A stretch of 64,000 nt of DNA from a virus, in the IMG/VR virus record IMGVR_UViG_3300017971_000006, positions 1 to 64,000 of that record. One strand, given 5' to 3'. Made by a program: the position numbers and the translations under genes. Shown here piece after piece: positions 2,019 to 62,191 of this stretch; position 1 is the first letter of the stretch; each line of letters starts with the position of its first letter. The notes beneath the pieces were generated by a model. The model ran no database searches and had not been told where the DNA came from. It saw only the letters and a list, made by a program, of their open reading frames with translations.

Positions 2019-5000
2019 ATGCCGTACGCTAGTCACAAAGAGGCAAACGAGGCGCTGAAGGCTAAGGTTCTTGAGGGTATCGGTGAGCACTTCCCTATCA
2101 AGGGAAAGAAGCGTGAGCTCCACCTTGAGAAGCTAGAGGCAGATATAGGGACAGACCCCGACGACATCAGGAAGCAGCACGACCACAAGATAAAAGGTAA
2201 GACCTTTGCTACTCCTGTGTATGCTACGTTGAGGCTAGAGAACAAGGAGACAGGGGAGACGTCTAAAGAGAGAGTCCGGATAGCGTCTATACCGACTGTA
2301 ACCAGTCGTTTCAGCCACATCATAGACGGTAAAGAGTACCAGGTAGACAGCCAGTGGCAGCTGAAGCCAGGGGCGTACACGAGGCGTGATGTTAAGGGTA
2401 AGGTGCACACGGCCTTTAACGCTCCTGATGGTAGAGACTTTAAGATAGAGCTAGACCCGGCCAGCAAGCAGCTGTCTCTTCGTAGAAAGAAGTCCAACAT
2501 ACCGCTGTACCCCTTGATGAGGGAGATGGGGGTTACAGACGAGCAGCTCCAAAAAAGCTGGGGCAAGGAGATGTTAGAGGCGAACAAGAGCGCCAGAGCA
2601 GTTGAGGGAGCGCTGGAGGCGTTCTACAAGGCTGATAAGAAGTCTGCCGCACCATCTAAGAAGGAGGCTGCTGCCTACTTCAAGGAGGCTATGACAGCGA
2701 CTAAGATGCAGCCTGAGGTGGCCAAGTCTACCCTGGGTGTAGAGTCTGACCACATAACGGGAGACGTTCTTCGCAAGGCGACGAAGAGAATACTTGATGT
2801 TCACTCCGGTGCTCCTGAGGATGATAGAGATAGCTTAGAGTACAAGAACCTTCGCTCCGTAGAGGACTTTGCGTACGACAAGCTCACTCACTGGAAGACA
2901 AAGAAGATTGTAGAGACCAGGGGTAAAAGGCAGATAGACAATCCGAAGGCGGATATTCGGAAGATAGTAAACTTTGATTCCTTTAACGAGCCTGTACGCC
3001 AGGTGTTCCGTACCTCAATGGCGCGAATGGCGGACCAGATTAACCCTGTAGAGATTATCTCCTCCGCCTCTCAGACAACTCCGCTGGGACCTGGCGGTAT
3101 ACAGTCTGTACAGCGCGTGACCGAGGATGCCAAGGCTATAAACCCATCGCACCTTGGGTACCTAGACCCGCTACGCACTCCTGAGGGGGAGAAGACGGGT
3201 ATCACGCTACGGCTCCCTATGGGGGTCCGCAAGAAGGGTAATGAGCCCGTTGTACCGATGTACAACGTTAAGACGGGTAAAATGGAGGATGTCCCGCCAA
3301 GCAAGTTTGTAAACGCCAACGTAGCACTGGCAGACCAGGTTACGTGGGATAAGGGTAAGCCCAAGCCTGTAGGCAAGGAGATAAAGATTGCCGGAAAGGG
3401 GAACAAGCTAACAACCGGGAGTCTAGACAACGTAGACTACATACAGCGGCACGCGTCTCAGGCTCTAAACACTACGACGAATCTAGTTCCCTTCATCGGC
3501 AGCTGCTCCGGGAACAGAGCTACATACGCTGGGCAGCACATAGAGCAGTCTATCTCCTTAGAGCATAGAGAGGCCCCCTTAGTACAGGTAGGTACGGGCT
3601 CTAAGAAGGAGGGGTTACAGACGTTCGAGGAGCTACTAGGTAAAGCGTCAGGGCACATGTCTCCCGTCGACGGAGAGGTAGTAAGCGTTAAGGGCGACGC
3701 CATCGTCGTTAAGGATAAGTCTGGGAAGAAGCACGAGGTACAGCTGTACAACAACTTCCCGTTGAACGACCCTAAAGCCGTCATCACCTCCACCCCCCTG
3801 GTAAAGGTGGGGGACAGTGTGAAGAGAAGGCAGTCTGTAGCGGACACGAACTTTACCAAAGACGGTAAGCTGGCCTTAGGTACAAATCTTAGAGCGGCCT
3901 ATCTACCCTACAAGGGGTACAACTTCGAGGATGGCGTTGTAGTTAGTGAGAGCGCGGCAAAGAAGCTGTCCTCAGTGCACATGCAGAAGCTCCCTATAGC
4001 CCTTGAGGACCAGGTTGTCACAGATCCCAAGAAGTTCAGGAACCAGCACCCTGAGGCATTCGGTAAGGAGCAGCACGGTAAGCTAGACGAGAAGGGGGTC
4101 GTGAAGGTAGGGCAGACAGTAAGGCCGGGAGACCCTCTGGTCCTAGCCATGCGTCCGTACAAGATGAAGGACAGGATGGACCTGGGCTCCATAGGCAAGA
4201 GCCTGTCCGGACAGCACACAGACATCTCTCTGCGCTGGGAGTCTGACCACCCTGGGGAGGTGGTAGGGGTACACAAGAAGGGCAAGGAGGTAACGGTCCA
4301 CGTAAAGACCGTGGAGCCTATGAAAGCGGGGGATAAGCTGACTGGGCGTCATGGAAACAAAGGGATTGTAACATGTTTCTCTAATGATTCCGAGGTGTTA
4401 ACCGATAAGGGCTGGAGGTTCTTCAAGGACCTAGACCGGACGGAGCTGATTTGTACGCTCAACCCGGCGACCAGGAAGATTGAGTACCAAGCTCCTACTG
4501 GGTACGTTGACCAGCAACATGACGGGAAGATGTACTCGTATAGCGGTCGTAGACTCAACCTACTGGTGACACCAGAGCATCGTCATTACGTTCGTACTCG
4601 TAGGGGCAGCTATTCCCTACAGCCTGCGAAGGAGTGTTTTGGGATGCCTCGGTTACACCTTCGCACTGGGGTATGGGAGGGGGAGGAGCTCGAGGAGATT
4701 ACTATCCCTGGTAGACCAGACGCCCCCAAGAGGCACAAGAAGCTCTCTGCCCCTAGGAAGTACGACACAGACCTGTTTTTGGAGCTCTTCGGGCTTTGGC
4801 TTACAGAGGGGTGTATTGGAGGTAGCTCCCACATACACATCGCGCAGACTCGCAGCGTACACCCAGAGGAATATGAGCGAATATGCTCCGTGATTGAGCG
4901 ACTCGGGTACAGTACCTATAAAGAGGCTACTAGGATTACCTTCTCCGACCCCCAGCTTCACGCATGGCTAAAGCAGTTCGGTAAGGCTAAGGATAAGTTC

Positions 5001-8000
5001 ATACCTCGTGAGCTCCTCGTACTCTCGCAGAGACAGCTTAGGATTTTGGCTGATGCGCTGTTTATGGGGGACGGTGGTGTTTACTATAGAGCGAAGGACA
5101 ACCACACTCGCTATGAGCTGTTTACCTCCTCCCCTAGGCTAGCTGATGACTATCAGGAGCTAGCTTTGAAGCTAGGGTTCTCTGCAAACATTAAGGAGCC
5201 TAAGCCTGGAGAGCTTGTCGTTCGGTGGTCCTTGAAAGACGAGGTGTGGACGAACAACGATAAGAGGTACTGTAACGAGCGCTGGGAAGAGTACAAGGGG
5301 AGGGTCTACTGCGTCGACGTTCCTAACCACATCATCTACGTGCGTCGTTTGGGCATCCCAGTGTGGTCTGGTAACTGTGTCCTCCCAGATAAGGAGATGC
5401 CACATACGAGGGATGGTAAGCCCATCGATGTAGCCCTCAACCCCGCAGGAGTTCCCGGCAGAATGAACCCGTCTCAGATACTAGAGACGGCCGCAGGGAA
5501 GGTAGCAGAGAAGACTGGCAAGCCATTCATTGTGGAGAACTTCGCACCCGGTGCCGACAACCTTGCGATGGTCAAGAAGGCTCTCAAGGAGCATGGCATC
5601 GAGGACAAGGAGGAGCTCATAGACCCCGTCACCAAGCAGAGTCTGGGGAAGGTTCTCGTGGGCCCCCAGCACATGCTAAAGCTGACCCATCAGATAGACA
5701 AGAAGACAGCGGTACGCTCAGGCATGCCCTTAAAAGGCGACAACGAGCCAGAGAGCTACGACAACAACCTTCTACCTATAGGTGGGAAGAAGACTGGCGG
5801 GCAGCGCATGAGCCCACTGGGCATCTACTCCCTGTTGGCGCACGGGGCCAAGGCAAATATCAGGGAGATGCAGACCATCAAGAGCGAGGGAGACGACCCC
5901 AGACCCTTTGGCTGGGCAGGCCAGCACAGAGAGGTGTGGTCTGCGATACAGTCTGGAACCCCTCTACCTACCCCCCGCCCAACGTTCTCCTTCAACAAGT
6001 TCACATCGATGTTGAAGGCGGCCGGCGTCAATGTAGAGAAGAAGGGCCACAACATACAGCTTCTGCCGCTTACGAATAAGCAGATAAAGGACATGTCCAG
6101 CGGGGCAATTCCTAAGCCCGCTGAGCTTGTCTACACAAAGCTAGATAAGAACGGAGAGCCCGTCCCTAAGAGAGGGGGTCTCTTCGACCCCAAGATAACA
6201 GGCGGTCACGGCGGTAAGAGGTGGAACCACATCAAGCTAGCAGAGCCCGTACCCAACCCTGTCTTCGAGACTGCGATTCAGAAGCTAACCGGCCTGAAAG
6301 AGAAGGATTACACAGGTATTGTTGGCGGTGACCAGGCGGTAGACGAGAAGGGAAACATAGTGGCTCTAGACACTCCTGGAGCTCTAACGGGGGGACCGGG
6401 GATAAAGCGCCTTCTAGACAAGATAGACGTAAACAAGGAGCTAGCGACGCAGCAGAAGAAGCTTAAAGAGATGCCCGTCCCTAAAGGCATGGCTCACGGA
6501 GCGCCAACGCAGGAGATGGACTCTACCGTCAAAAAGATAAAGTACCTGCGTGCACTTAAGCAGATTGGCGCTAAACCGTCGGAGGCGTATGTTCTAGAGA
6601 ACCTTCCTGTAATCCCGCCGCAGATGCGTCCAGCATCTGTAATGAAGGATGGCTCCATTAAGTGGGAGGACATTAACGGGCTGTACCAGCTTCTAGCGCA
6701 GGGTAACGACTCTCTCAAGAAGGACTCTATGAAGGAGATTCTCGACAAGAACACGGCCAAGCGAAAGGCTAGAAAGAGTCTATATGATGGCGTCAAGGCT
6801 GTGATGGGTGTCGGTACATTTGGAGAGGACGATAAGTACAAAGGAATCTTGCAGCAGATTCATGGTAGCTCCCCTAAGGAGGGGTTCTTCCAGAAGACCC
6901 TAATGAACCGAAGGCAAGACCTCTCTATGCGCTCTGTCATCGTCCCTGAGCCCTCTCTCGGGGTAGATGAGGTGGGGATGCCTAAGGACTACGCGCTTAA
7001 GCTGATGCGACCGTTCGTTGCCAGAAAGCTAGTAGAGACGGGTGCAGCTAGAAACCCACTAGAGGCGAGGTCTATGCTCGCCGATAAGAAGGCTACTAAG
7101 AACCCATCAGTGCTCAGGGCGATAGAGCTTGTCGCTGATGAACGTCCTGTAATCCTGAAGAGAGACCCCGTGCTGCACAAGCACTCCGTACAGGCGTTCA
7201 AAACAAAGCTTGTAGGAGGTAAGGCGATAAAGATTCACCCGTTGGTGACGGGCGGCTTCAATGCCGATTTTGACGGGGATACAATGAGCGCCTACGTCCC
7301 CGTAGGAAGGGAGGCTGTTGAGGAGGCGAAGGGCATGCTCCCGTCAAAGAACCTGTACGCCGAGGCGTCAGGAAAGGTCACGTACCAGCCTAGTCTAGAC
7401 AGCGCTATGGGTCTCTACAAGATGACCAAGGTAGATAAGGTCAGTCGTAAGAGCTACAAGAGCCCGACAGAGGCGCTGCAAGCTGCTCAACGAGGGGAGC
7501 TGGGTATGACGGAGCTGGCGACGGTAGGAGGCAAGAAGACCACTCCAGGAAGGATGCTTGTAGCGTCTGCCCTTCCAGATGGTATGCAGGAGAAGGCCAT
7601 AGAGTCTCTTCCCACGTTAGACAAGAAGGGAATCACTAAGCTCTACTCGGAGCTAGCGAAGAACCACAAGGGTGACTTCGGAGACTCGGCGCACAAGCTG
7701 ATGAAGTTTGGGTTTGAAGCTGCTAACGGGCTTGTGTCTGTTCCTAACCCAGCACAGAAGGGTAGACAGGCAATAGAGGACGCGGAGCGACCAGACAAGA
7801 CCAAGATGTACATCCCGATGGGGGCACACTCCTTAGGGCTTGAGGACCTAGAGCCGGACAAAGCTACCAGAGACAAGCATCTAGGGATGGCAAAGAAGAG
7901 AGTAGACTTGATACGCGCCAGTAAGATGTCCGAGGCGGAGAAGGAGCGCCAGATACCCCTTGTATGGGCTAAGGCTAGTGCAGAGATGGACAAGGAGCAC

Positions 8001-9449
8001 AGGTCCAAGCTCCCAAAGAACAATCTGGCAACCATGCTATCGTCAGGCAACAAGCCGGGGTGGGACCAGTACAAGCAGCTGGCCTTAGCTCCTGTGATGA
8101 TGGTCGACTCTACTGGCTCGCCAGTTCCGGTACCGGTCGACAAGTCCTACGCGGAGGGCATGGACTTTGGAGGGTATTGGACGGCTGCCACTGGTGCACG
8201 CAGGGGCTCTGTACGAAAGGTTCAAGAGGTGTCGGAGCCAGGCTACTTCTCCAAGAAGCTGGTGCAGAACACCGTGAACCTTGTTGTAACTGGCGATGAC
8301 TGCAAGACGGACCGGGGTGTATCGATGTCTGTCGGTGACGAGGGGGCGTACGACAGGACCCTTGCAAGGTCGTTCAAGGCCAAAGGTCTCGAGGTCCCTG
8401 CTGGGACGGTGCTGACACCGGACATCTTGGGAAAGATGCGTAGAGCAGACAAGAATGCCCAGCTTGTAGTTCGCAGCGCCCTTAAATGTACGCACGGACA
8501 AGGGCTCTGCCAGAAGTGCGCAGGGCTGGGCGCAGATGGTAACCGGTACCCCGTAGGTACCAACGTGGGTATCCTCGCCGCACAGTCTCTCGGAGAGCGC
8601 TCAGTGCAGCTCCCTATGAAGGCGTTCCACAGTGGAGGGGTGTGGACGCCCAAGGCGTCGGTTGCAGACCAGTTTGCGAGAGTTCAGCAGCTGACCTCTA
8701 TGCCGGACAAGATAGCGAACTCAGCCACCTTAGCCATGACATCGGGCAGGGTTGAGAAGATACAGAGGGACAAGACCGGTACCAAGGTGTGGGTCGGGGG
8801 TAAAGCCCACCATGTGGGCAAGGATAAGAAGGGACGCTCTTTGTTCTCAGTAGACGATGACTCTCCTTGGAGGCCGCCTAAGGTTGGGGACAAGATAGAG
8901 GCCGGAACATCCTTGTCTGACCCCTCAAGAACAGTGGTCAATCCTAAGGACCTCTACAAGGCTACCAACAACTTCGAGAAGGTGCAGAACCACCTTGTAG
9001 ACGAGCTGCACAAGATTTACGCTGAGGAAGGAGTAAGAAGGCAGCACGTGGAGACGGTAGTTAAGGGGATGACGAACACGACGAAGATACGTGACCCAGG
9101 GGATGCTCCGTATCTTCTGAAGGGAGAGATAATGCCTGCGTCTGTGATAAGAGAGCAGAACATGAAGCTCGTGAAGGCGGGCAAGAAGCCGACAGTGCAT
9201 TCACCTATACTGAAGGGGGTGGACTTCGCCCCACTCCAAGCTCAGCAGGACTGGATGGCTAAGCTGCAGCACGAGAGGCTTAGAAGCACCATCATGGACT
9301 CGGCGGCTACAGGAGCTGTGTCGCACATACACGGTGTACACCCTGTTCCTGGCATCGCATACGGAGCTGAGTTTGGTGTGACGAAGGAGCATGCCAAGAG
9401 AACCCCAGGTCTTACTAGACTTCTAGACGTACCGGAGCACGCGTACTAA
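2019..9449 (+). CDS. fused beta-beta' DNA-directed RNA polymerase with an intein
   Basis: A single 2476-residue chain carries the beta and then the beta' core of a multisubunit-type RNA polymerase. Beta motifs: RTPEG near residue 387, GYNFEDGVVVSES near 633, GRHGNKG at 776-782. The beta-to-beta' passage lies near residue 1350, after REMQTIKSEGD and before GGLFDPKITGG. Beta' motifs: LPVIPPQMRP, the catalytic NADFDGD at 1748-1754 with its three Mg-binding Asp, a CTHGQGLCQKC zinc motif near 2155, and GILAAQSLGERS followed by MKAFHSGG near 2195. The N-terminal zinc cysteines usual in beta' are absent around GGLFDPK. Without the intein (residues 786-1119) the protein has 2142 residues, clearly shorter than bacterial beta plus beta'. 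It probably transcribes phage genes. No alpha, omega or sigma gene was recognised nearby. The next gene starts inside its stop (TAATG). Confidence 0.95.
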   Translation: MPYASHKEANEALKAKVLEGIGEHFPIKGKKRELHLEKLEADIGTDPDDIRKQHDHKIKGKTFATPVYATLRLENKETGETSKERVRIASIPTVTSRFSHIIDGKEYQVDSQWQLKPGAYTRRDVKGKVHTAFNAPDGRDFKIELDPASKQLSLRRKKSNIPLYPLMREMGVTDEQLQKSWGKEMLEANKSARAVEGALEAFYKADKKSAAPSKKEAAAYFKEAMTATKMQPEVAKSTLGVESDHITGDVLRKATKRILDVHSGAPEDDRDSLEYKNLRSVEDFAYDKLTHWKTKKIVETRGKRQIDNPKADIRKIVNFDSFNEPVRQVFRTSMARMADQINPVEIISSASQTTPLGPGGIQSVQRVTEDAKAINPSHLGYLDPLRTPEGEKTGITLRLPMGVRKKGNEPVVPMYNVKTGKMEDVPPSKFVNANVALADQVTWDKGKPKPVGKEIKIAGKGNKLTTGSLDNVDYIQRHASQALNTTTNLVPFIGSCSGNRATYAGQHIEQSISLEHREAPLVQVGTGSKKEGLQTFEELLGKASGHMSPVDGEVVSVKGDAIVVKDKSGKKHEVQLYNNFPLNDPKAVITSTPLVKVGDSVKRRQSVADTNFTKDGKLALGTNLRAAYLPYKGYNFEDGVVVSESAAKKLSSVHMQKLPIALEDQVVTDPKKFRNQHPEAFGKEQHGKLDEKGVVKVGQTVRPGDPLVLAMRPYKMKDRMDLGSIGKSLSGQHTDISLRWESDHPGEVVGVHKKGKEVTVHVKTVEPMKAGDKLTGRHGNKGIVTCFSNDSEVLTDKGWRFFKDLDRTELICTLNPATRKIEYQAPTGYVDQQHDGKMYSYSGRRLNLLVTPEHRHYVRTRRGSYSLQPAKECFGMPRLHLRTGVWEGEELEEITIPGRPDAPKRHKKLSAPRKYDTDLFLELFGLWLTEGCIGGSSHIHIAQTRSVHPEEYERICSVIERLGYSTYKEATRITFSDPQLHAWLKQFGKAKDKFIPRELLVLSQRQLRILADALFMGDGGVYYRAKDNHTRYELFTSSPRLADDYQELALKLGFSANIKEPKPGELVVRWSLKDEVWTNNDKRYCNERWEEYKGRVYCVDVPNHIIYVRRLGIPVWSGNCVLPDKEMPHTRDGKPIDVALNPAGVPGRMNPSQILETAAGKVAEKTGKPFIVENFAPGADNLAMVKKALKEHGIEDKEELIDPVTKQSLGKVLVGPQHMLKLTHQIDKKTAVRSGMPLKGDNEPESYDNNLLPIGGKKTGGQRMSPLGIYSLLAHGAKANIREMQTIKSEGDDPRPFGWAGQHREVWSAIQSGTPLPTPRPTFSFNKFTSMLKAAGVNVEKKGHNIQLLPLTNKQIKDMSSGAIPKPAELVYTKLDKNGEPVPKRGGLFDPKITGGHGGKRWNHIKLAEPVPNPVFETAIQKLTGLKEKDYTGIVGGDQAVDEKGNIVALDTPGALTGGPGIKRLLDKIDVNKELATQQKKLKEMPVPKGMAHGAPTQEMDSTVKKIKYLRALKQIGAKPSEAYVLENLPVIPPQMRPASVMKDGSIKWEDINGLYQLLAQGNDSLKKDSMKEILDKNTAKRKARKSLYDGVKAVMGVGTFGEDDKYKGILQQIHGSSPKEGFFQKTLMNRRQDLSMRSVIVPEPSLGVDEVGMPKDYALKLMRPFVARKLVETGAARNPLEARSMLADKKATKNPSVLRAIELVADERPVILKRDPVLHKHSVQAFKTKLVGGKAIKIHPLVTGGFNADFDGDTMSAYVPVGREAVEEAKGMLPSKNLYAEASGKVTYQPSLDSAMGLYKMTKVDKVSRKSYKSPTEALQAAQRGELGMTELATVGGKKTTPGRMLVASALPDGMQEKAIESLPTLDKKGITKLYSELAKNHKGDFGDSAHKLMKFGFEAANGLVSVPNPAQKGRQAIEDAERPDKTKMYIPMGAHSLGLEDLEPDKATRDKHLGMAKKRVDLIRASKMSEAEKERQIPLVWAKASAEMDKEHRSKLPKNNLATMLSSGNKPGWDQYKQLALAPVMMVDSTGSPVPVPVDKSYAEGMDFGGYWTAATGARRGSVRKVQEVSEPGYFSKKLVQNTVNLVVTGDDCKTDRGVSMSVGDEGAYDRTLARSFKAKGLEVPAGTVLTPDILGKMRRADKNAQLVVRSALKCTHGQGLCQKCAGLGADGNRYPVGTNVGILAAQSLGERSVQLPMKAFHSGGVWTPKASVADQFARVQQLTSMPDKIANSATLAMTSGRVEKIQRDKTGTKVWVGGKAHHVGKDKKGRSLFSVDDDSPWRPPKVGDKIEAGTSLSDPSRTVVNPKDLYKATNNFEKVQNHLVDELHKIYAEEGVRRQHVETVVKGMTNTTKIRDPGDAPYLLKGEIMPASVIREQNMKLVKAGKKPTVHSPILKGVDFAPLQAQQDWMAKLQHERLRSTIMDSAATGAVSHIHGVHPVPGIAYGAEFGVTKEHAKRTPGLTRLLDVPEHAY
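4374..5375 (+). other. intein with LAGLIDADG endonuclease in the RNA polymerase
   Basis: Residues 786-1119 (334 aa) interrupt the invariant beta motif right after GRHGNKGIVT. The first intein residue is Cys, block B reads VTPEHRHY, and two LAGLIDADG-like segments follow (LFGLWLTEG and ALFMGDGG). The end reads PVWSGN, then Cys as the first residue of the downstream extein. The usual penultimate His is replaced by Gly. After removal the flanks read GRHGNKGIVT-CVLPDKEMP, which aligns with the uninterrupted bacterial motif, so excision is needed for a working polymerase. Confidence 0.9.
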
Positions 9450-15044: not shown

Positions 15045-16829
15045 ATGTCGTCATTATCACACACCCCAGATATACGTTGCTCCTCATCTAAGATTGCCAA
15101 CCCGTACGGCGGGGTACCGGACAACGTCATATGGACACCAGAGGATGAGGTAGGCACCCCCCTTGTGATGGATATGAGCGAGGTGGGGGAGCTTAAGGAC
15201 CTGAGCCTGTACCCCTCGGAGTTTACAGAGTTTGCGTTCTACATGCCCGTTACAGGAGGAGGGTACGCGCCATTCTCCTTTGAGGGTCGCAGGCACATGT
15301 ACCGGTGCTACGACACGCCCGCAAAAAGGATACTTCTATTCTGCGGGAGACAAGTGGAGAAGAGCACCCTGCTCGGTAACCGTGCTCTTTGCTACATGTG
15401 CCTTAGACCCGCTAGCCGCATTCTGTACGTGTCTCCCTCGGCGACACAGACAGTGACGTTCTCTAACGACAGAATCAAAGAGCCAATAGAGACGAGCCCC
15501 GTTCTTCGCAAATTCACCACAAGGATGCTGTCTCAGACAATCCTAGCGAAGCAGTTCTTAAACAGGTCCATCATCACCATGCGTTACGCGTTCCTCAACG
15601 CAGACCGTGCGCGTGGTATTCCAGCTACAACTCTTCTGCTTGATGAGTTTCAAGACATCCTGTCCGACAACATACCGGTAATAGAGCAATGCCTCTCCCA
15701 CGCAGACAAGGATGTAAAGGTTCAGATATACGCGGGTACCCCGAAGAGCCTAGACAACAACCTAGAGGTGTACCGAGCTAAGTACTCTACACAGGGAGAG
15801 TGGGTAGTACCCTGCGACAGCTGCGGCAATGAGGGCTCCTTCAGGTACTGGAACGTGCTGGGTGAGAAGAACATAGCTCGCAAAGGGCTGTCATGCGAGA
15901 GATGCGGGAAGCTGATAAACCCCATGCATCCGGACGCTCAGTGGGCGCGCATGGTGGAGCACGCGCCCTTTGAGTCTTACCGAATACCCCAGCTGATGGT
16001 CCCATGGGTGGCGTGGGACGAGATAATGCTGAACTACGAGCGGTACCCTCGTGCGCAGTTCTACAACGAGGTGCTAGGCATCAGCTACGACTCGGGATTA
16101 CGCCCTCTTACAATCGGACAGCTTCAAGAGGTGTGCAATGAGGACGTGCTCATGGTGGACGCCGAAGAGTACATCGGTCTGGGAGCGAGCCAGCCCATCT
16201 TCATGGGGATTGACTGGGGGACAGGAGAGGGCACCTACACGGTTGTGACACTGGGCACCTACGTAGACATGAAGTTCCGCATCTTCTACGCACGTAGGTT
16301 CACAGGTGCAGCAACCTCGCCCTCTGTACAGATGGAGATTATCTATCAGCTGATAGACCGGTACAACGTACGCTTGGTGGGGGTAGACTACGGTGGTGGT
16401 TTCGACCGTAACGACCTGCTTATGCGCAGGTACGGCCCCTCTAGAATATTCAAGTATCAGTACGCCGCACGCTCTAGAAGAAAGCTTCTATGGAATGGGG
16501 AGCTTAACCGCTACATCGCCCATCGAACAGAGGTGATGAGCGACATCTTCAACGCCATCAAGAAAGGGCTGTGTGAGCTACCTTGCTGGGAGGACTGGAA
16601 GGACCCGTTTGGGCAGGACATGCTCAACATCTTCAGCGAGTATAACAAGGTAATACGGATGATTGTCTACAAGAACCACAAAGGCTCTCCAGACGATACA
16701 TTCCATTCCATCCTTTACTGCTGGCTCGCATCCATGCTTCTGATAAAGAGACCAGACATCATCGTCCCTCGTAAGGAGGAGGACGTTAAGATGAACAACG
16801 ACATGGAGCATGAATTTGAGATTTACTAG
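15045..16829 (+). CDS. terminase large subunit
   Basis: A 594-residue packaging motor. The ATPase part has Walker A GRQVEKST at 101-108 and Walker B TTLLLDEFQD near 195-204. Two Cys pairs (CDSC near 257, CERC near 284) form a likely zinc site. The RNase H-like nuclease part has GIDWGTGEG (Asp390), VGVDYGGGFD (Asp448) and SPDDTFHS near the C-terminus as the metal-binding Asp set. The start is uncertain. ATG 15045 lacks a ribosome-binding site, and the first 15 or so codons use rarer triplets than the rest. The reliable protein begins around residue 16. Confidence 0.92.
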   Translation: MSSLSHTPDIRCSSSKIANPYGGVPDNVIWTPEDEVGTPLVMDMSEVGELKDLSLYPSEFTEFAFYMPVTGGGYAPFSFEGRRHMYRCYDTPAKRILLFCGRQVEKSTLLGNRALCYMCLRPASRILYVSPSATQTVTFSNDRIKEPIETSPVLRKFTTRMLSQTILAKQFLNRSIITMRYAFLNADRARGIPATTLLLDEFQDILSDNIPVIEQCLSHADKDVKVQIYAGTPKSLDNNLEVYRAKYSTQGEWVVPCDSCGNEGSFRYWNVLGEKNIARKGLSCERCGKLINPMHPDAQWARMVEHAPFESYRIPQLMVPWVAWDEIMLNYERYPRAQFYNEVLGISYDSGLRPLTIGQLQEVCNEDVLMVDAEEYIGLGASQPIFMGIDWGTGEGTYTVVTLGTYVDMKFRIFYARRFTGAATSPSVQMEIIYQLIDRYNVRLVGVDYGGGFDRNDLLMRRYGPSRIFKYQYAARSRRKLLWNGELNRYIAHRTEVMSDIFNAIKKGLCELPCWEDWKDPFGQDMLNIFSEYNKVIRMIVYKNHKGSPDDTFHSILYCWLASMLLIKRPDIIVPRKEEDVKMNNDMEHEFEIY

Positions 16830-22381: not shown

Positions 22382-22497
22382 TGGTCAACGTGGGAGGGGT
22401 CGAACCTCCGCTCCACTGCTGTTCACCTACACTTCGTGTGCACCCTCCATGTAGTCACCAGCAGCTTTCTCTGTCCGGGCCTCTCACCCGCACGTTG
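22382..22497 (-). tRNA. tRNA-like gene with a long non-standard insert
   Basis: Acceptor CAACGTG/CACGTTG, T arm GGAGG-TTCGACC-CCTCC and an encoded ACCA end are clear. The middle is about 80 bases instead of about 40: a short GGG/CCC D arm, then CTGCTG pairing with CAGCAG around an insert that itself folds (CTACA/TGTAG, ACAC-GAA-GTGT). No usable anticodon is obvious. Its first bases overlap the CCA of the neighbour at 22496. It may be a tRNA with an inserted sequence or a tRNA-like RNA of other use. Confidence 0.5.
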
Positions 22498-22580
22498 GTG
22501 GATGGGGGAGGAGTTGAACCTCCGACACACGGCGATACCCTCCGGTATCGCTGCTGCTCTGCCACCTGAGCTACCCATCC
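22496..22580 (-). tRNA. tRNA-like gene with a closed anticodon hairpin
   Basis: Acceptor GGATGGG/CCCATCC, D arm GCTC-AGGTGGCA-GAGC, T arm GGAGG-TTCAACT-CCTCC and an encoded ACCA end are canonical. In the anticodon position lies GCGATACC-GGAG-GGTATCGC, an 8-bp stem with a four-base loop that leaves no normal 7-base anticodon loop. The 3' CCA runs directly into the next tRNA-like gene. Confidence 0.6.
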
Positions 22581-41253: not shown

Positions 41254-44190
41254 ATGCTCAAGTACTCACACTTCTTAGGCGACGCAGAGACCGGCCCAAC
41301 GGCTATCCCTCTATTTGGACCTGCCGACTCAGAGTTCGAGAAGACGGCAGCCCCTACCCTTTTACCAGAGGTGGTCGAGTATATTGCGACGCTACAGCCT
41401 AGAAACGACTCTCAGTACGTGCTCGTCAACGCCATGGGCGCCGGGGAGTACTACGGCTCGAATATCAACGGGGACCACTTTCCAGAGGCCGCCCTCATCC
41501 ACAAGCCCAGCGACTGGACGGGGAACCCGCTTGTGGATAGAGCTCGTGCTAGAACCTGGCCGTATGGTTTTCCCACCTTTTATCTGGCGCATCCGTACGC
41601 GCACCACAGAAATAAGGACCCAAAGAGGGCGTTCGGTGGGGTAGAGCTAGCAGCATGGAACGAGCACATGAAGCGTGTAGAGCTGATTGTGCGTGTAGAC
41701 CATGAGAGGTGCCAGCAGTTCGGGGGAATAGGGGTCTGGGACAAGCTGATATCCGGTAAGTATCCAGATGTGTCGATGGGATGCGTTCCTGCGGGTACTC
41801 GCGTAATGCTTGCGGATGGCTCTTTTAAGCAGATGGAGTGCATGCAGGAAGGGGACCAGGTAATCACGCACGTGGGGAAGGTGTGCTGTGTCGAGGAGGC
41901 CCTTAGGTACCAGTACGAGGGTACCCTATACAGATTTAAGGCGTACGGGTTTCCTAGGGAGCTCTGCTTAACAGAGAACCACCCGTTGTGGTTGGTACGG
42001 GGGGAGCAGCTGGTATGTAAGCCTACGGCAGGAGTCAACAAGGGGCGCAAGCAGCGGCACTGCACTCCTCTGGTCAAGTCCAGAGGTAAGGGGTGTATGG
42101 GCTGCGAGACTACTCCTAGATACGGCTTTGAGTGGGTGCGCGCAGACGAAGCAGAGGTAGGGGACTACGTAGCGTTCCCGGTCCCCTCTGCGGTAGATGC
42201 CACCGTAAGCAGCGTGGACGAGGCTAGGTTTCTTGGATTCTACCTAGCAGGAGGGCATGTTGGCAGCTACAACGACCATCCTTTGGAGCAAATCACCTTC
42301 AGCCTTGGATTTGAGGAGAAGGAGCTAGCAGAGGAGATAGAGTCTTTGGGGAGGAAGCTGGGAGCTACTGTCTCATGGCATAGCGAGGACAAGGACAGGG
42401 GGGGTCGCTACGTAACAGTGGTTAGCAAGGAGCTAGCAGACAGATGCCTTCGTTTCTGCGGCTCCGGCGCTAAGACAAAGCAGCTGTCTAGAGAGGCCCT
42501 GTATATGTGCACAGAGCTGCAGAAGGCGTTTCTTGGGGCTTACTTGGATGGAGATGGGGGCACTTACAAAGGCTCCGCGTACTTCTCTACATCGTCTGAG
42601 CAGCTTGCAGACCAGCTATTTGTAGCGTTAGCTAGGTGCGGAATGATTAGCTCCATCAACACCATCAATCACATACCGTCTGCACGGTCTGTTGTGCGGA
42701 AGGAAACTGTAGAGTACCAGGTGTGGGTTGGTACAGACTTCTCACCTGTTATCGGTCCGTACACCAGGAAGCCTGTACGTGCCTCTAAGAAGGTAAGGGG
42801 TCAGCGGTTCTTCTACGAGTACGAAGGGACCAAATACATCCTTTCCCCGATACTGGAGATTGTAGAGGAGGATTACAGAGATGATGTGTTCAATATCTCT
42901 GTAAAGGGTGACGACAGCTACGTCTCAGAGCTCATTGCTACGCACAACACGAAAGTTCCGTACGACACCTGTGCAATCTGTCTAGACTGGGACGAGTACA
43001 CTAAGGCACTGCTTACCTACAAGGACGGGAAGCACAAGCATCCTGGTGAGGCTGTTCTTATCTACCACAAGGCTAAGAAAGCCAAGGATGGTGTTGGCAT
43101 CAGGGGTCTGTCTATCACTCGAGCGGATTACTGCGAGCACGCACGCAAGATGATGAACCGTATCCTTCCTGATGGCAGGAAGGTTTGGGTCTACAACGAC
43201 TTCCCTCGCTTCTTTGACATCTCCTTCGTCTTCATCGGTGCAGATAAGATTGCCAAGGTGATGATGTACATCTCTAGGATGGGTGTCCCTGCTGAGGATG
43301 AGCCGAGAGATATGGTCGTTGGGGAGCCGGTGGATGCTACGCTAGAGAAGAGCGCAGAGAGAAAGCCACCACATGCTTGGAGCTGGAAGACCAGATACGA
43401 GACCAGGCGTAAGAACGGGTGGTTGCCTAAGGACAAGCCGATAAAGGACAAGGTAGCATCACTAGATGACCTCATACTCAAGACTGCTTTTGGCAAGCTG
43501 GCAAAGCCAAAGAGCGCTGAGATTAAGAAGGATGTCGTTCCAAGTCAATTTGCGGGTAAGGCTGTACCTCTGCTTACGCAGGCGGAAGGGGATATCCCGA
43601 GAGAGGTCCTTGAGGCGCTGAGCGATGTACCCCTGGGCAACGCTCTATCTACTACAGCAGGCATGGGCGTGCTTTTACGTCCTAGAGAGTTTCAGCGTAT
43701 ACTCTTAACACGTATGGGTAGAAGGGATGAGGCAGATGAGCTGGAGGGGAGAGGCACTGTGTTTCCTCGTATGGCTGAACGTGTGTGCCCTCACATGGCT
43801 CCTGAGCTGTTCATGCCCTCCCTCGCTAGGCTACTACTCCCTCTCCTTGCCCATCGGTCAGCTTTGGGGCCTGAGATAGAGAGAAGAGTAGTTGTTCTAT
43901 CCTCTTTTACACCGAAGAAAGAAGCTTCGTGCTCTTCCCATACACCGGAGCTCCTGCATAAGATTGGAGCTGCATACAACGGTTACCGTAGTGGAGCACT
44001 GGAGCTAGTGGCGCAAACACAAGGTCTGACAGCTAACCTAGGAGAGCTAGAGAAGCAGGCTAGTGCGCCCGTAGACTCAATATTTACCCCACTAGCTGTA
44101 CACTACATACATCACGCTTACTGGGATGAGGTAGGGCAGCCGGGGGCAACAGGCCGTGTGGCCGGCGTGGAGAGGGGACGCCCCTCGTAG
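41254..44190 (+). CDS. putative capsid-maturation (prohead protease-like) virion protein with an intein
   Basis: A 978-residue chain, 589 without the intein at residues 177-565. N-extein features are NAMGAGEYYGSNINGDHFPE and AHPYAHHRNKDPKRAFG, with a conserved His/Asp region (VDHERCQQFGGIGVWDKL) and YPDVSMG. The C-extein continues with TKVPYDTCAICLDWDEY, then FPRFFDISFVFIGADKIAKV. The joined SMGTKVPYDTC block recalls proteins annotated as prohead protease or capsid maturation factors in large phages, but the catalytic residues cannot be assigned with certainty. The C-terminal 250 residues are divergent. Its place just before scaffold- and capsid-like genes fits a head-assembly role. Confidence 0.6.
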   Translation: MLKYSHFLGDAETGPTAIPLFGPADSEFEKTAAPTLLPEVVEYIATLQPRNDSQYVLVNAMGAGEYYGSNINGDHFPEAALIHKPSDWTGNPLVDRARARTWPYGFPTFYLAHPYAHHRNKDPKRAFGGVELAAWNEHMKRVELIVRVDHERCQQFGGIGVWDKLISGKYPDVSMGCVPAGTRVMLADGSFKQMECMQEGDQVITHVGKVCCVEEALRYQYEGTLYRFKAYGFPRELCLTENHPLWLVRGEQLVCKPTAGVNKGRKQRHCTPLVKSRGKGCMGCETTPRYGFEWVRADEAEVGDYVAFPVPSAVDATVSSVDEARFLGFYLAGGHVGSYNDHPLEQITFSLGFEEKELAEEIESLGRKLGATVSWHSEDKDRGGRYVTVVSKELADRCLRFCGSGAKTKQLSREALYMCTELQKAFLGAYLDGDGGTYKGSAYFSTSSEQLADQLFVALARCGMISSINTINHIPSARSVVRKETVEYQVWVGTDFSPVIGPYTRKPVRASKKVRGQRFFYEYEGTKYILSPILEIVEEDYRDDVFNISVKGDDSYVSELIATHNTKVPYDTCAICLDWDEYTKALLTYKDGKHKHPGEAVLIYHKAKKAKDGVGIRGLSITRADYCEHARKMMNRILPDGRKVWVYNDFPRFFDISFVFIGADKIAKVMMYISRMGVPAEDEPRDMVVGEPVDATLEKSAERKPPHAWSWKTRYETRRKNGWLPKDKPIKDKVASLDDLILKTAFGKLAKPKSAEIKKDVVPSQFAGKAVPLLTQAEGDIPREVLEALSDVPLGNALSTTAGMGVLLRPREFQRILLTRMGRRDEADELEGRGTVFPRMAERVCPHMAPELFMPSLARLLLPLLAHRSALGPEIERRVVVLSSFTPKKEASCSSHTPELLHKIGAAYNGYRSGALELVAQTQGLTANLGELEKQASAPVDSIFTPLAVHYIHHAYWDEVGQPGATGRVAGVERGRPS
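41782..42948 (+). other. intein with LAGLIDADG endonuclease in the capsid-maturation-like gene
   Basis: Residues 177-565 (389 aa). It starts CVPAGTRVMLADGSFK (block A), has LTENHPLWL (block B), LAGLIDADG-like FLGFYLAGGHVG and FLGAYLDGDGG, and ends with DDVFNISVKGDDSYV and then IATHN (blocks F and G), followed by Thr as the first downstream extein residue. All canonical splicing residues are present. Its sequence is not close to that of the polymerase intein. Confidence 0.92.
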
Positions 44191-61525: not shown

Positions 61526-61585
61526 GTCATGCTGGATAACGTCACAACCTCTTCGGGAATAAGGGCTCTGAAAGGAGATACCCTC

Positions 61586-62191
61586 ATGAAAAGGTTTGAC
61601 GATTTCACAGGCATGACGTTCGGATGGCTCAGTATCACCAAGCAAGCTCAACCTGACGAGCACTTCAACACCTGGTGGCGCGCAACGTGTCGCTGCGGGA
61701 AAGAGCGCTCTATCAGGGCCTCTCAGATTAGAGAGGGCAAGTTTTTTACCTGCGGCTCTGAGGAGTGCAGGTTCTGGTCTAAGGTAGACAAGACAAGCTC
61801 CGACAAGGGCTGCTGGCTCTGGACCGGTGCAGTAAAGGACACAGGGTACGGCGTCTTCAAACCCAGTCCGCATGCTACAGTGGTTAAGGCCCCTAAGTAC
61901 GCATGGGAGTCTACAAGAGGACCGGTACCAAAAGACAAGTGGTTGTTGCACAAATGTGATGACCGGAGGTGCTGTAACCCAGAGCATCTGTACCTGGGTA
62001 CGCACCAAGACAACATGGATGACATGAAGAGGCGAGGAAGGAGTAAAGTACCTCGTCTTAAGGTCGCCGAATCGGATAGAAAAACTATCCGGGAGAGATA
62101 CTCCTCTGGGGCGTCCCAGACTGAGCTCGCCAAGGAGTTTGGTGTGGGGACGCGTACAATACGAAGGATTATCAGAGAGGTAGGAGGATAG
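61586..62191 (+). CDS. HNH homing endonuclease
   Basis: Start at ATG 61586, with AAAGGAG eight bases before it. The zinc-binding lead domain has CRCGKER and CGSEECRFW, and the HNH motif reads KWLLHKCDDRRCCNPEHLYL with GTHQDNMDDMKRRGR after it (HNH_3 type). A C-terminal HTH (GASQTELAKEFGVGTRTIRR) gives DNA recognition. It stands between sheath and tube genes, where a free-standing homing endonuclease is an insertion. Confidence 0.85.
   Translation: MKRFDDFTGMTFGWLSITKQAQPDEHFNTWWRATCRCGKERSIRASQIREGKFFTCGSEECRFWSKVDKTSSDKGCWLWTGAVKDTGYGVFKPSPHATVVKAPKYAWESTRGPVPKDKWLLHKCDDRRCCNPEHLYLGTHQDNMDDMKRRGRSKVPRLKVAESDRKTIRERYSSGASQTELAKEFGVGTRTIRRIIREVGG

What the first reader, a model, noticed from the sequence alone, without database searches (positions are those of the whole stretch)
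2019..9449. Single-chain beta-beta' RNA polymerase in a phage, interrupted by an intein in its most conserved loop
Beta and beta' are fused in one gene and reduced to about 2142 residues after splicing. The intein sits directly behind GRHGNKG, so the polymerase is inactive until it splices. The beta' N-terminal zinc site is missing, while catalytic NADFDGD is intact. No other polymerase subunit was recognised in 64 kb. This could be a polymerase lineage distinct from the split phiKZ type and from crAss-like single-chain enzymes.
Basis: partly seen in the sequence, partly recalled or inferred. Interest (0 to 1): 0.8.

Follow-up and report, generated by a model that had tools for sequence, protein, structure and literature searches.

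The report
Phage single-chain RNA polymerase with intein
This phage carries a complete bacterial-type RNA polymerase whose two big subunits are one protein that must cut out an internal parasite (an intein) before it can work; it belongs to a large, mostly uncultured phage lineage with the same one-piece enzyme, usually with its own sigma-type start factor, which suggests these phages run transcription with two proteins instead of the usual host set.

Summary
Confirmed: window 2019-9449 is one 2476-aa ORF encoding beta, a 334-aa LAGLIDADG intein (aa 786-1119) and beta'; 2142 aa remain after splicing. NADFDGD, the trigger-loop His and the second Zn site are intact; the N-terminal beta' Zn site is gone.

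It is not unique. 189 IMG/VR loci (165 distinct proteins) carry one ORF spanning beta to beta'. 103 representatives are separated from 25 bacteria by one fully supported branch; all 103 lack the first Zn site. Cultured Salmonella phage Arash and Vibrio phages D69/D148/D181 belong here, with the beta' C-terminus in a separate gene.

Correction: the polymerase is probably not alone. At contig 97982-98878, outside the window, lies a divergent sigma-70-family gene, present in 33 of 41 related records; its profile matches sigmaA over regions 2-4 (E 5e-17). No alpha was found.

Best reading: an alpha-less one-chain core plus a dedicated sigma, switched on by protein splicing. Inteins recur at active-site motifs across the clade.

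Novelty: new variant of a known kind. The lineage was probably sampled as 'mReC' (2020), whose main text mentions no fused mReC enzyme, intein or sigma. Assembly, promoter use and virion packaging are inferred.

The parts
2019..9449 (+). single ORF, 2476 aa: beta - intein - beta - beta' in one chain
2019..4373 (+). N-extein, beta aa 1-785, ending ...GRHGNKGIVT (GRHGNKG at nt 4344-4364)
   Evidence: Rpb2_3 and Rpb2_6; alignment to relatives
4374..5375 (+). LAGLIDADG intein, 334 aa (aa 786-1119), Cys1 ... Gly-Asn | Cys+1
   Evidence: exact insertion against intein-less relatives; intein family alignment; AF2 model and Foldseek
5376..6038 (+). C-extein, rest of beta (aa 1120-1340), running without a linker into beta'
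   Evidence: bacterial beta ends near aa 1339-1340 and beta' begins near aa 1342-1356 in the alignments
6039..9446 (+). beta' part, aa 1341-2476
   Evidence: Rpb1 domains; AF2 pLDDT 88.5, TM 0.82 to bacterial RpoC
6198..6212 (+). point where the beta' N-terminal Zn domain (about 36 aa in bacteria) is missing
   Evidence: 0 of 103 phages against 25 of 25 bacteria have the CxC...CxxC site
7260..7280 (+). catalytic NADFDGD, aa 1748-1754
8301..8519 (+). second beta' Zn site: Cys 2095, 2157, 2164, 2167
   Evidence: pattern present in 98 of 103 phage representatives
8577..8639 (+). trigger-loop segment AAQSLGERSVQLPMKAFHSGG with His 2204
   Evidence: His invariant in 50 aligned phages; intein site in L025 and L088
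9449..10687 (+). neighbour: baseplate-assembly-like protein, conserved next to the RNAP in 113 of 146 loci
15045..16829 (+). neighbour: terminase large subunit, conserved near the RNAP in 95 of 146 loci

Best explanation
The gene encodes the catalytic core of a phage-owned, bacterial-type RNA polymerase in which beta and beta' are one polypeptide, so the core need not rely on an alpha dimer to bring the two large subunits together. The precursor should be inactive on translation, because a LAGLIDADG intein splits the beta double-psi-barrel loop at GRHGNKGIVT|C; splicing restores a 2142-aa core. The spliced core most likely joins the phage's own divergent sigma-70-family factor (contig 97982-98878, outside the window), which directs it to phage promoters. 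The gene sits in the structural gene region between portal and baseplate/terminase genes, so it is probably made late and may be packaged in the virion. Shown by computation: single ORF, intein anatomy and fold, catalytic motifs, beta' fold, clade separation, clade-wide Zn1 loss, a co-conserved sigma-family gene, no detectable alpha. Inferred: splicing in vivo, core-sigma assembly, promoter specificity, timing and packaging.
For: Single ORF and domain order. The same fusion in 165 distinct proteins. Phages and bacteria split by one branch with full support. NADFDGD, Zn2 and trigger-loop His kept. beta' model pLDDT 88.5, TM 0.82 to bacterial RpoC. Intein defined against empty sites and by fold. 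Sigma-family partner: Sigma70_r3 over cut-off in the window phage's own copy, profile match to SigA at 5e-17, homologues in 33 of 41 related records. No RNA_pol_L (alpha) in G000, and none over cut-off in 43 related records. Portal homologue, baseplate-like gene and TerL around the RNAP.
Against: No experiment. The sigma gene is about 89 kb away and nothing here shows it binds this core; some members also carry a second, more ordinary sigma-like gene. Alpha could be too divergent to detect; omega was not tested. Eight records lack a detectable sigma homologue; one of them (W03) is host contamination and several others are fragments. No promoter motif emerged.
Confidence: 0.72

Rival explanations
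1. The single chain is a true RNAP core but is not autonomous: it borrows host alpha, omega and/or host sigma, and the phage sigma-like protein serves the host polymerase instead.
For: Many phages carry sigma factors for host RNAP (PMC7824862). The flap-tip region and clamp are broadly bacterial in alignment and fold.
Against: The sigma-like family is found in most of the RNAP-bearing records, Arash and D181 included, which fits a partner of this enzyme. Its region 2.3 lacks the usual Trp pair in 28 of 29 members. phiKZ-type phage RNAPs work without alpha (PMC7598289).
Confidence: 0.2
2. The polymerase is a recent capture of a host rpoB-rpoC pair, fused after transfer (for example from a Helicobacter-like fusion).
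For: Close bacterial homology and bacterial domain order.
Against: 27-29% identity to bacteria against 59% to the nearest phage; one long, fully supported branch between phages and bacteria; clade-wide Zn1 loss; the best 80 hits in 84,980 species genomes are all at most 30% identical; Helicobacter and Wolbachia fusion models score 460 and 426 bits against cut-offs of 5372 and 4632. No Helicobacter row was in the tree.
Confidence: 0.03
3. The fusion is an assembly or frame artefact and the real genome has two genes.
For: One relative (L157) shows beta and beta' as two ORFs at the junction.
Against: 165 distinct proteins show the same fusion; the near-identical locus L156 is fused; cultured D69 and Arash are fused at the same junction.
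Confidence: 0.01
4. The intein has no role for the phage: it is only a homing parasite and splicing is constitutive. (Compatible with the best explanation; it concerns the 'switch'.)
For: Sporadic presence (28 of 165 proteins are longer than 2230 aa), several different sites in the clade, and the known preference of inteins for conserved sites (PMC1635734). LAGLIDADG motifs look intact.
Against: Nothing excludes conditional splicing; it was not tested.
Confidence: 0.8

Closest known systems
mReC, multi-subunit RNAP-encoding Caudovirales (Weinheimer and Aylward 2020, PMC7481178)
   Same: Phage-encoded, alignable beta and beta', deep separate branch from bacteria, NADxDGD, surrounded by phage structural genes; their data source (IMG/VR) and filters would accept fused proteins.
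   Different: A search of the main text found no fused mReC enzyme, no intein and no sigma. Their capsid (PF07068) and terminase (PF03237) families are not found here (control).
Salmonella phage Arash and Vibrio phages D69, D148, D181 (GenBank)
   Same: Same beta-beta' junction fusion, Zn1 missing, homologous portal and sigma-family protein, similar genome size.
   Different: beta' C-terminal third in a separate gene; AADYDGD instead of NADFDGD in Arash and D69; only about 31-32% identical to the window protein.
phiKZ/AR9-type jumbo phage RNAPs (PMC7598289)
   Same: Phage-owned two-barrel RNAP without alpha and omega.
   Different: Those are split into four or more polypeptides and come as two enzymes; here one chain, far closer to bacterial sequences.
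Helicobacter and Wolbachia fused RpoBC
   Same: beta and beta' in one chain.
   Different: Cellular; about 2850-2890 aa; models far below cut-off here; Zn1 loss is not part of those enzymes (own knowledge).
crAss-like single-chain RNAP and YonO
   Same: Single-chain phage RNAPs with two-barrel ancestry.
   Different: Reported as too divergent for COG0085/COG0086 models (PMC7481178), whereas this protein matches bacterial rpoB and rpoC models at 1e-89 and 1e-136.
Inteins in eukaryotic RNAP second-largest subunits (PMC1635734)
   Same: Several non-allelic inteins at the most conserved sites of RNAP; one of them also ends in Gly-Asn.
   Different: Here a phage enzyme, with sites in both beta and beta', including NADFDGD and the trigger loop.

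Membership tests
bacterial-type two-barrel RNA polymerase | beta and beta' domains with the NADFDGD catalytic loop | tested here: met
   Pfam domains and motif; beta' fold TM 0.82 to RpoC
bacterial-type two-barrel RNA polymerase | beta' N-terminal Zn site | tested here: not met
   absent in 103 of 103 phages, present in 25 of 25 bacteria
bacterial-type two-barrel RNA polymerase | alpha subunit encoded by the same genome | tested here: not met
   no RNA_pol_L match in G000; none over cut-off in 43 related records
bacterial-type two-barrel RNA polymerase | promoter-dependent RNA synthesis | not testable with these tools
   needs purified protein
mReC | phage contig with alignable beta and beta' forming a branch separate from cells | tested here: met
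mReC | major capsid protein of family PF07068 | tested here: not met
   0 of 20 records including G000; the search does ring in Rhizobium phage RHph_TM30
mReC | terminase large subunit of family PF03237 | tested here: not met
   TerL matches only PF05876 at E <= 0.01
mReC | sequence falls among the 97 published contigs in a tree | not testable with these tools
   supplementary contig list not available
phiKZ-type RNAP | beta and beta' each split into several polypeptides, two enzymes per genome | tested here: not met
   one ORF; Rpb2_6 only in this ORF in the whole record
Helicobacter/Wolbachia beta-beta' fusion | match to the fusion models NF007172 / NF011417 above cut-off | tested here: not met
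   460 of 5372 bits and 426 of 4632 bits
crAss-like RNAP | no recognisable similarity to rpoB/rpoC profile models | tested here: not met
   strong rpoB and rpoC profile matches; no crAss sequence was compared directly
intein (LAGLIDADG class) | exact in-frame insertion, Cys1, block B Thr-x-x-His, LAGLIDADG motifs, terminal Asn, Cys/Ser/Thr at +1 | tested here: met
   fold match to full-length inteins
intein (LAGLIDADG class) | penultimate His | tested here: not met
   Gly-Asn here and in 28 relatives; Gly-Asn is known in another RNAP intein (PMC1635734)
intein (LAGLIDADG class) | splices | not testable with these tools
   needs expression
sigma-70 family (P0002, contig 97982-98878) | regions 2, 3 and 4 | tested here: met
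   P0002 over the Sigma70_r3 cut-off; family profile aligned over regions 2-4 of SigA, E 5e-17. Region 2 is weak: 2 of 29 members match Sigma70_r2 on their own
sigma-70 family (P0002, contig 97982-98878) | binds this core and directs initiation | not testable with these tools
   needs biochemistry

The most novel reading that the evidence does not exclude
A large, old and mostly uncultured phage lineage runs a minimal two-protein RNA polymerase holoenzyme: a single-chain beta-beta' core without alpha, omega or the beta' N-terminal Zn domain, plus one dedicated divergent sigma factor, with activity gated by protein splicing at different active-site motifs in different members.
Probability: 0.5. 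Interest if true: 0.8.

Novelty: new variant of a known kind. Interest (0 to 1): 0.62.

Why it matters
Bacterial RNAP uses alpha to assemble its two large subunits. A natural one-chain core with its own sigma-family partner would be among the simplest bacterial-type holoenzymes known, useful for asking what the core minimally needs and as an orthogonal promoter system. The lineage also gives a deep, alignable phage branch of RNAP evolution with cultured members (Arash, D181), so the questions are directly testable. Inteins at the beta barrel loop, the RTPEG region, NADFDGD and the trigger loop make this clade an unusual natural set of splicing-dependent polymerases.

Tried and rejected
A single-protein scan of IMG/VR found nothing; alignments were needed. 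The wastewater 'phage' contigs OR846602 and OR844998, and the Listeria-named ones, first looked like split two-gene phage RNAPs; they are most likely host chromosome contamination (Gram-positive-sized rpoB and rpoC) and were treated as bacteria or dropped. The Sigma70_r4 hit at 61529-62191 was rejected as sigma (HNH endonuclease with an HTH). Loss of the beta flap was suspected; the alignment shows only a short deletion there. A promoter word search in 75 upstream regions gave only weak, scattered words. No archaeal rows were available to root the tree. Literature searches for a described fused phage RNAP of this type found none in the open-access library, which lacks subscription papers and most preprints. 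An in-frame TGA near the start of the L052 intein was considered as a split intein and rejected, since the same codon sits at Trp positions in other relatives.

Full report
What is in the sequence. Window 2019-9449 (+) is one uninterrupted ORF of 2476 codons. Pfam finds, in order, Rpb2_3, Rpb2_6, LAGLIDADG_3, Rpb1_1, Rpb1_2 and Rpb1_5. The window is the first 64 kb of an IMG/VR virus record of 178,559 bp with a 123-bp direct terminal repeat, so the genome is probably complete.

The intein. Twenty-eight related inteins from this phage group share Cys1, the block B His (with Thr three residues before it in nearly all), LAGLIDADG-type acidic helices and a C-terminal Gly-Asn. The AlphaFold model (pLDDT 93.7) matches whole inteins TliVMA, PhoVMA, PI-SceI and PI-PfuI. 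That the precursor is inactive until spliced follows from the position in the double-psi-barrel loop; it was not measured.

The enzyme. NADFDGD (aa 1748-1754), the trigger-loop segment MKAFHSGG (His 2204) and the second Zn site are present. The beta' N-terminal Zn domain is missing: 103 of 103 phage representatives lack it and 25 of 25 bacteria have it. Compared with bacteria the rest of the chain shows only short clade-wide deletions. Bacterial beta ends and bacterial beta' begins at about the same point of this chain (aa 1340-1356), so the fusion has almost no linker. The beta' part folds with pLDDT 88.5 and matches bacterial RpoC with TM 0.82.

It is a lineage. Two alignment-based scans of IMG/VR and a third with basal members returned 221 loci, some from the same contigs. 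In 189 loci one ORF runs from the beta start to the beta' end, 165 distinct proteins; 137 of these are 2230 aa or shorter (median 2079 aa) and 28 are longer. In a FastTree of 128 rows and an IQ-TREE mixture-model tree of 44 rows, phages and bacteria lie on opposite sides of one fully supported long branch. The window's closest relative in the tree (L060) is 59% identical; bacteria are 27-29%. The best 80 hits among one genome for each of 84,980 bacterial and archaeal species are all at most 30% identical and appear to be cellular. So this is not a recent capture from a sequenced host. The deep root cannot be placed here for lack of an archaeal outgroup.

Cultured relatives. Salmonella phage Arash and Vibrio phages D69, D148 and D181 carry the same beta-beta' fusion, with the beta' C-terminal part in a separate gene. 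Arash and D69 have AADYDGD instead of NADFDGD. Arash and D69 form one supported clade with L154 and L158. The junction fusion is therefore common to the whole group; the separate beta' C-terminus marks one branch. Rhizobium phage RHph_TM30, which has a separate full beta' with the Zn domain, groups away from the clade, on a long branch.

The missing partner. No Sigma70_r2 match exists in the genome, but a 298-aa protein at contig 97982-98878, outside the window, is related (E 1.5e-14) to a protein of relative G013 that has a weak Sigma70_r2 match. Homologues occur in 33 of 41 related records, Arash and D181 (weakly) included. The family profile hits SigA/RpoD chains in the PDB at up to 5.4e-17, aligned over regions 2 to 4. 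The window phage's own copy passes Pfam's Sigma70_r3 cut-off. The Trp pair of region 2.3, which helps bacterial sigma open the -10 element (own knowledge), is found in only 1 of 29 members; this hints at a different promoter code (inference). Alpha (RNA_pol_L) was not found in G000, nor above cut-off in 43 related records. Omega was not tested.

Where the gene sits. The neighbourhood is conserved in relatives: a portal homologue (33% identical to Arash's annotated portal) in 119 of 146 loci, a baseplate-like gene in 113 and the terminase in 95. This is the structural gene region, so late expression and packaging into virions are plausible but untested.

Inteins across the clade. Besides the window's site, insertions of intein type occur at GDK(L/M)|C just before GRHGNKG, at GRHGNKGI|C, in RTPEG, at NADFDGD, in the trigger loop at MKAFH|C, and at about aa 1146. 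A further large insert at about aa 1300 (L089) shows no homology to the window's intein. This matches the known preference of inteins for the most conserved sites, described for eukaryotic RNAP genes (PMC1635734), and argues that homing is the main force.

Relation to known work. Weinheimer and Aylward (PMC7481178) described mReC, phages with a deep-branching beta/beta'. Their filters would accept a fused protein and they searched IMG/VR, so members of this clade are probably among their 97 contigs. A search of the main text found no mention of a fused mReC enzyme, inteins or sigma. Their capsid (PF07068) and terminase (PF03237) markers are not met here (positive control for PF07068). The phiKZ type is split and comes as two enzymes (PMC7598289). 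The Helicobacter and Wolbachia fusion models score far below cut-off.

Verdict. What is new, as far as could be checked, is the combination: one-chain core, clade-wide loss of the Zn1 domain, a co-conserved divergent sigma, no detectable alpha, and recurrent inteins at active-site motifs.

Noticed in passing
G000 contig 97982-98878 (L008:15482-16378), outside the window: Divergent sigma-70-family protein (298 aa), conserved in 33 of 41 records with the fused RNAP.
   Followed up: yes
L342:4045-10110, L345:4075-10137, L349:4603-10035, L052:9983-17047: In-frame TGA codons in the fused RNAP genes of some relatives (11 in L342), several at conserved Trp positions such as MP[TGA]KGYNFE; looks like TGA read as Trp in those phages.
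   Followed up: partly
window 41254-44190 (+): A second intein-bearing protein, 978 aa (LAGLIDADG_3, weak Intein_splicing); the host protein is of unknown function.
   Followed up: no
relatives, about 6 kb downstream of the RNAP, e.g. L039:22151-25162, L055:22875-25754: A ~960-aa protein near the RNAP carries an allelic intein in many relatives; in the window the terminase (594 aa, no intein) lies at that distance, so it may be the terminase.
   Followed up: partly
window 61529-62191 (+): HNH endonuclease with a C-terminal HTH that mimics sigma region 4.
   Followed up: yes
L002, L003 (Vibrio phage D69, Salmonella phage Arash): Catalytic loop reads AADYDGD; other relatives have G, S, T or M in place of the first Asn/Ala pair. 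Whether these enzymes are fully active is open.
   Followed up: no
GenBank OR846602, OR844998, OR848788, OR846821: Records named as Enterococcus, Staphylococcus and Listeria phages carry Gram-positive-like rpoB and rpoC and are probably host chromosome contamination.
   Followed up: partly
L001:11968-17482 (Vibrio phage D181): The beta part is interrupted by a homing endonuclease gene that is absent in D69, so probably an intron.
   Followed up: no
NC_070966.1 155259-158642 (L365): Rhizobium phage RHph_TM30 encodes a separate full-length beta' with the Zn site and no Rpb2_6 match in its genome.
   Followed up: partly
window 22496-22580 (-): tRNA-like gene with an odd four-base anticodon (ggag) reported by ARAGORN.
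   Followed up: no
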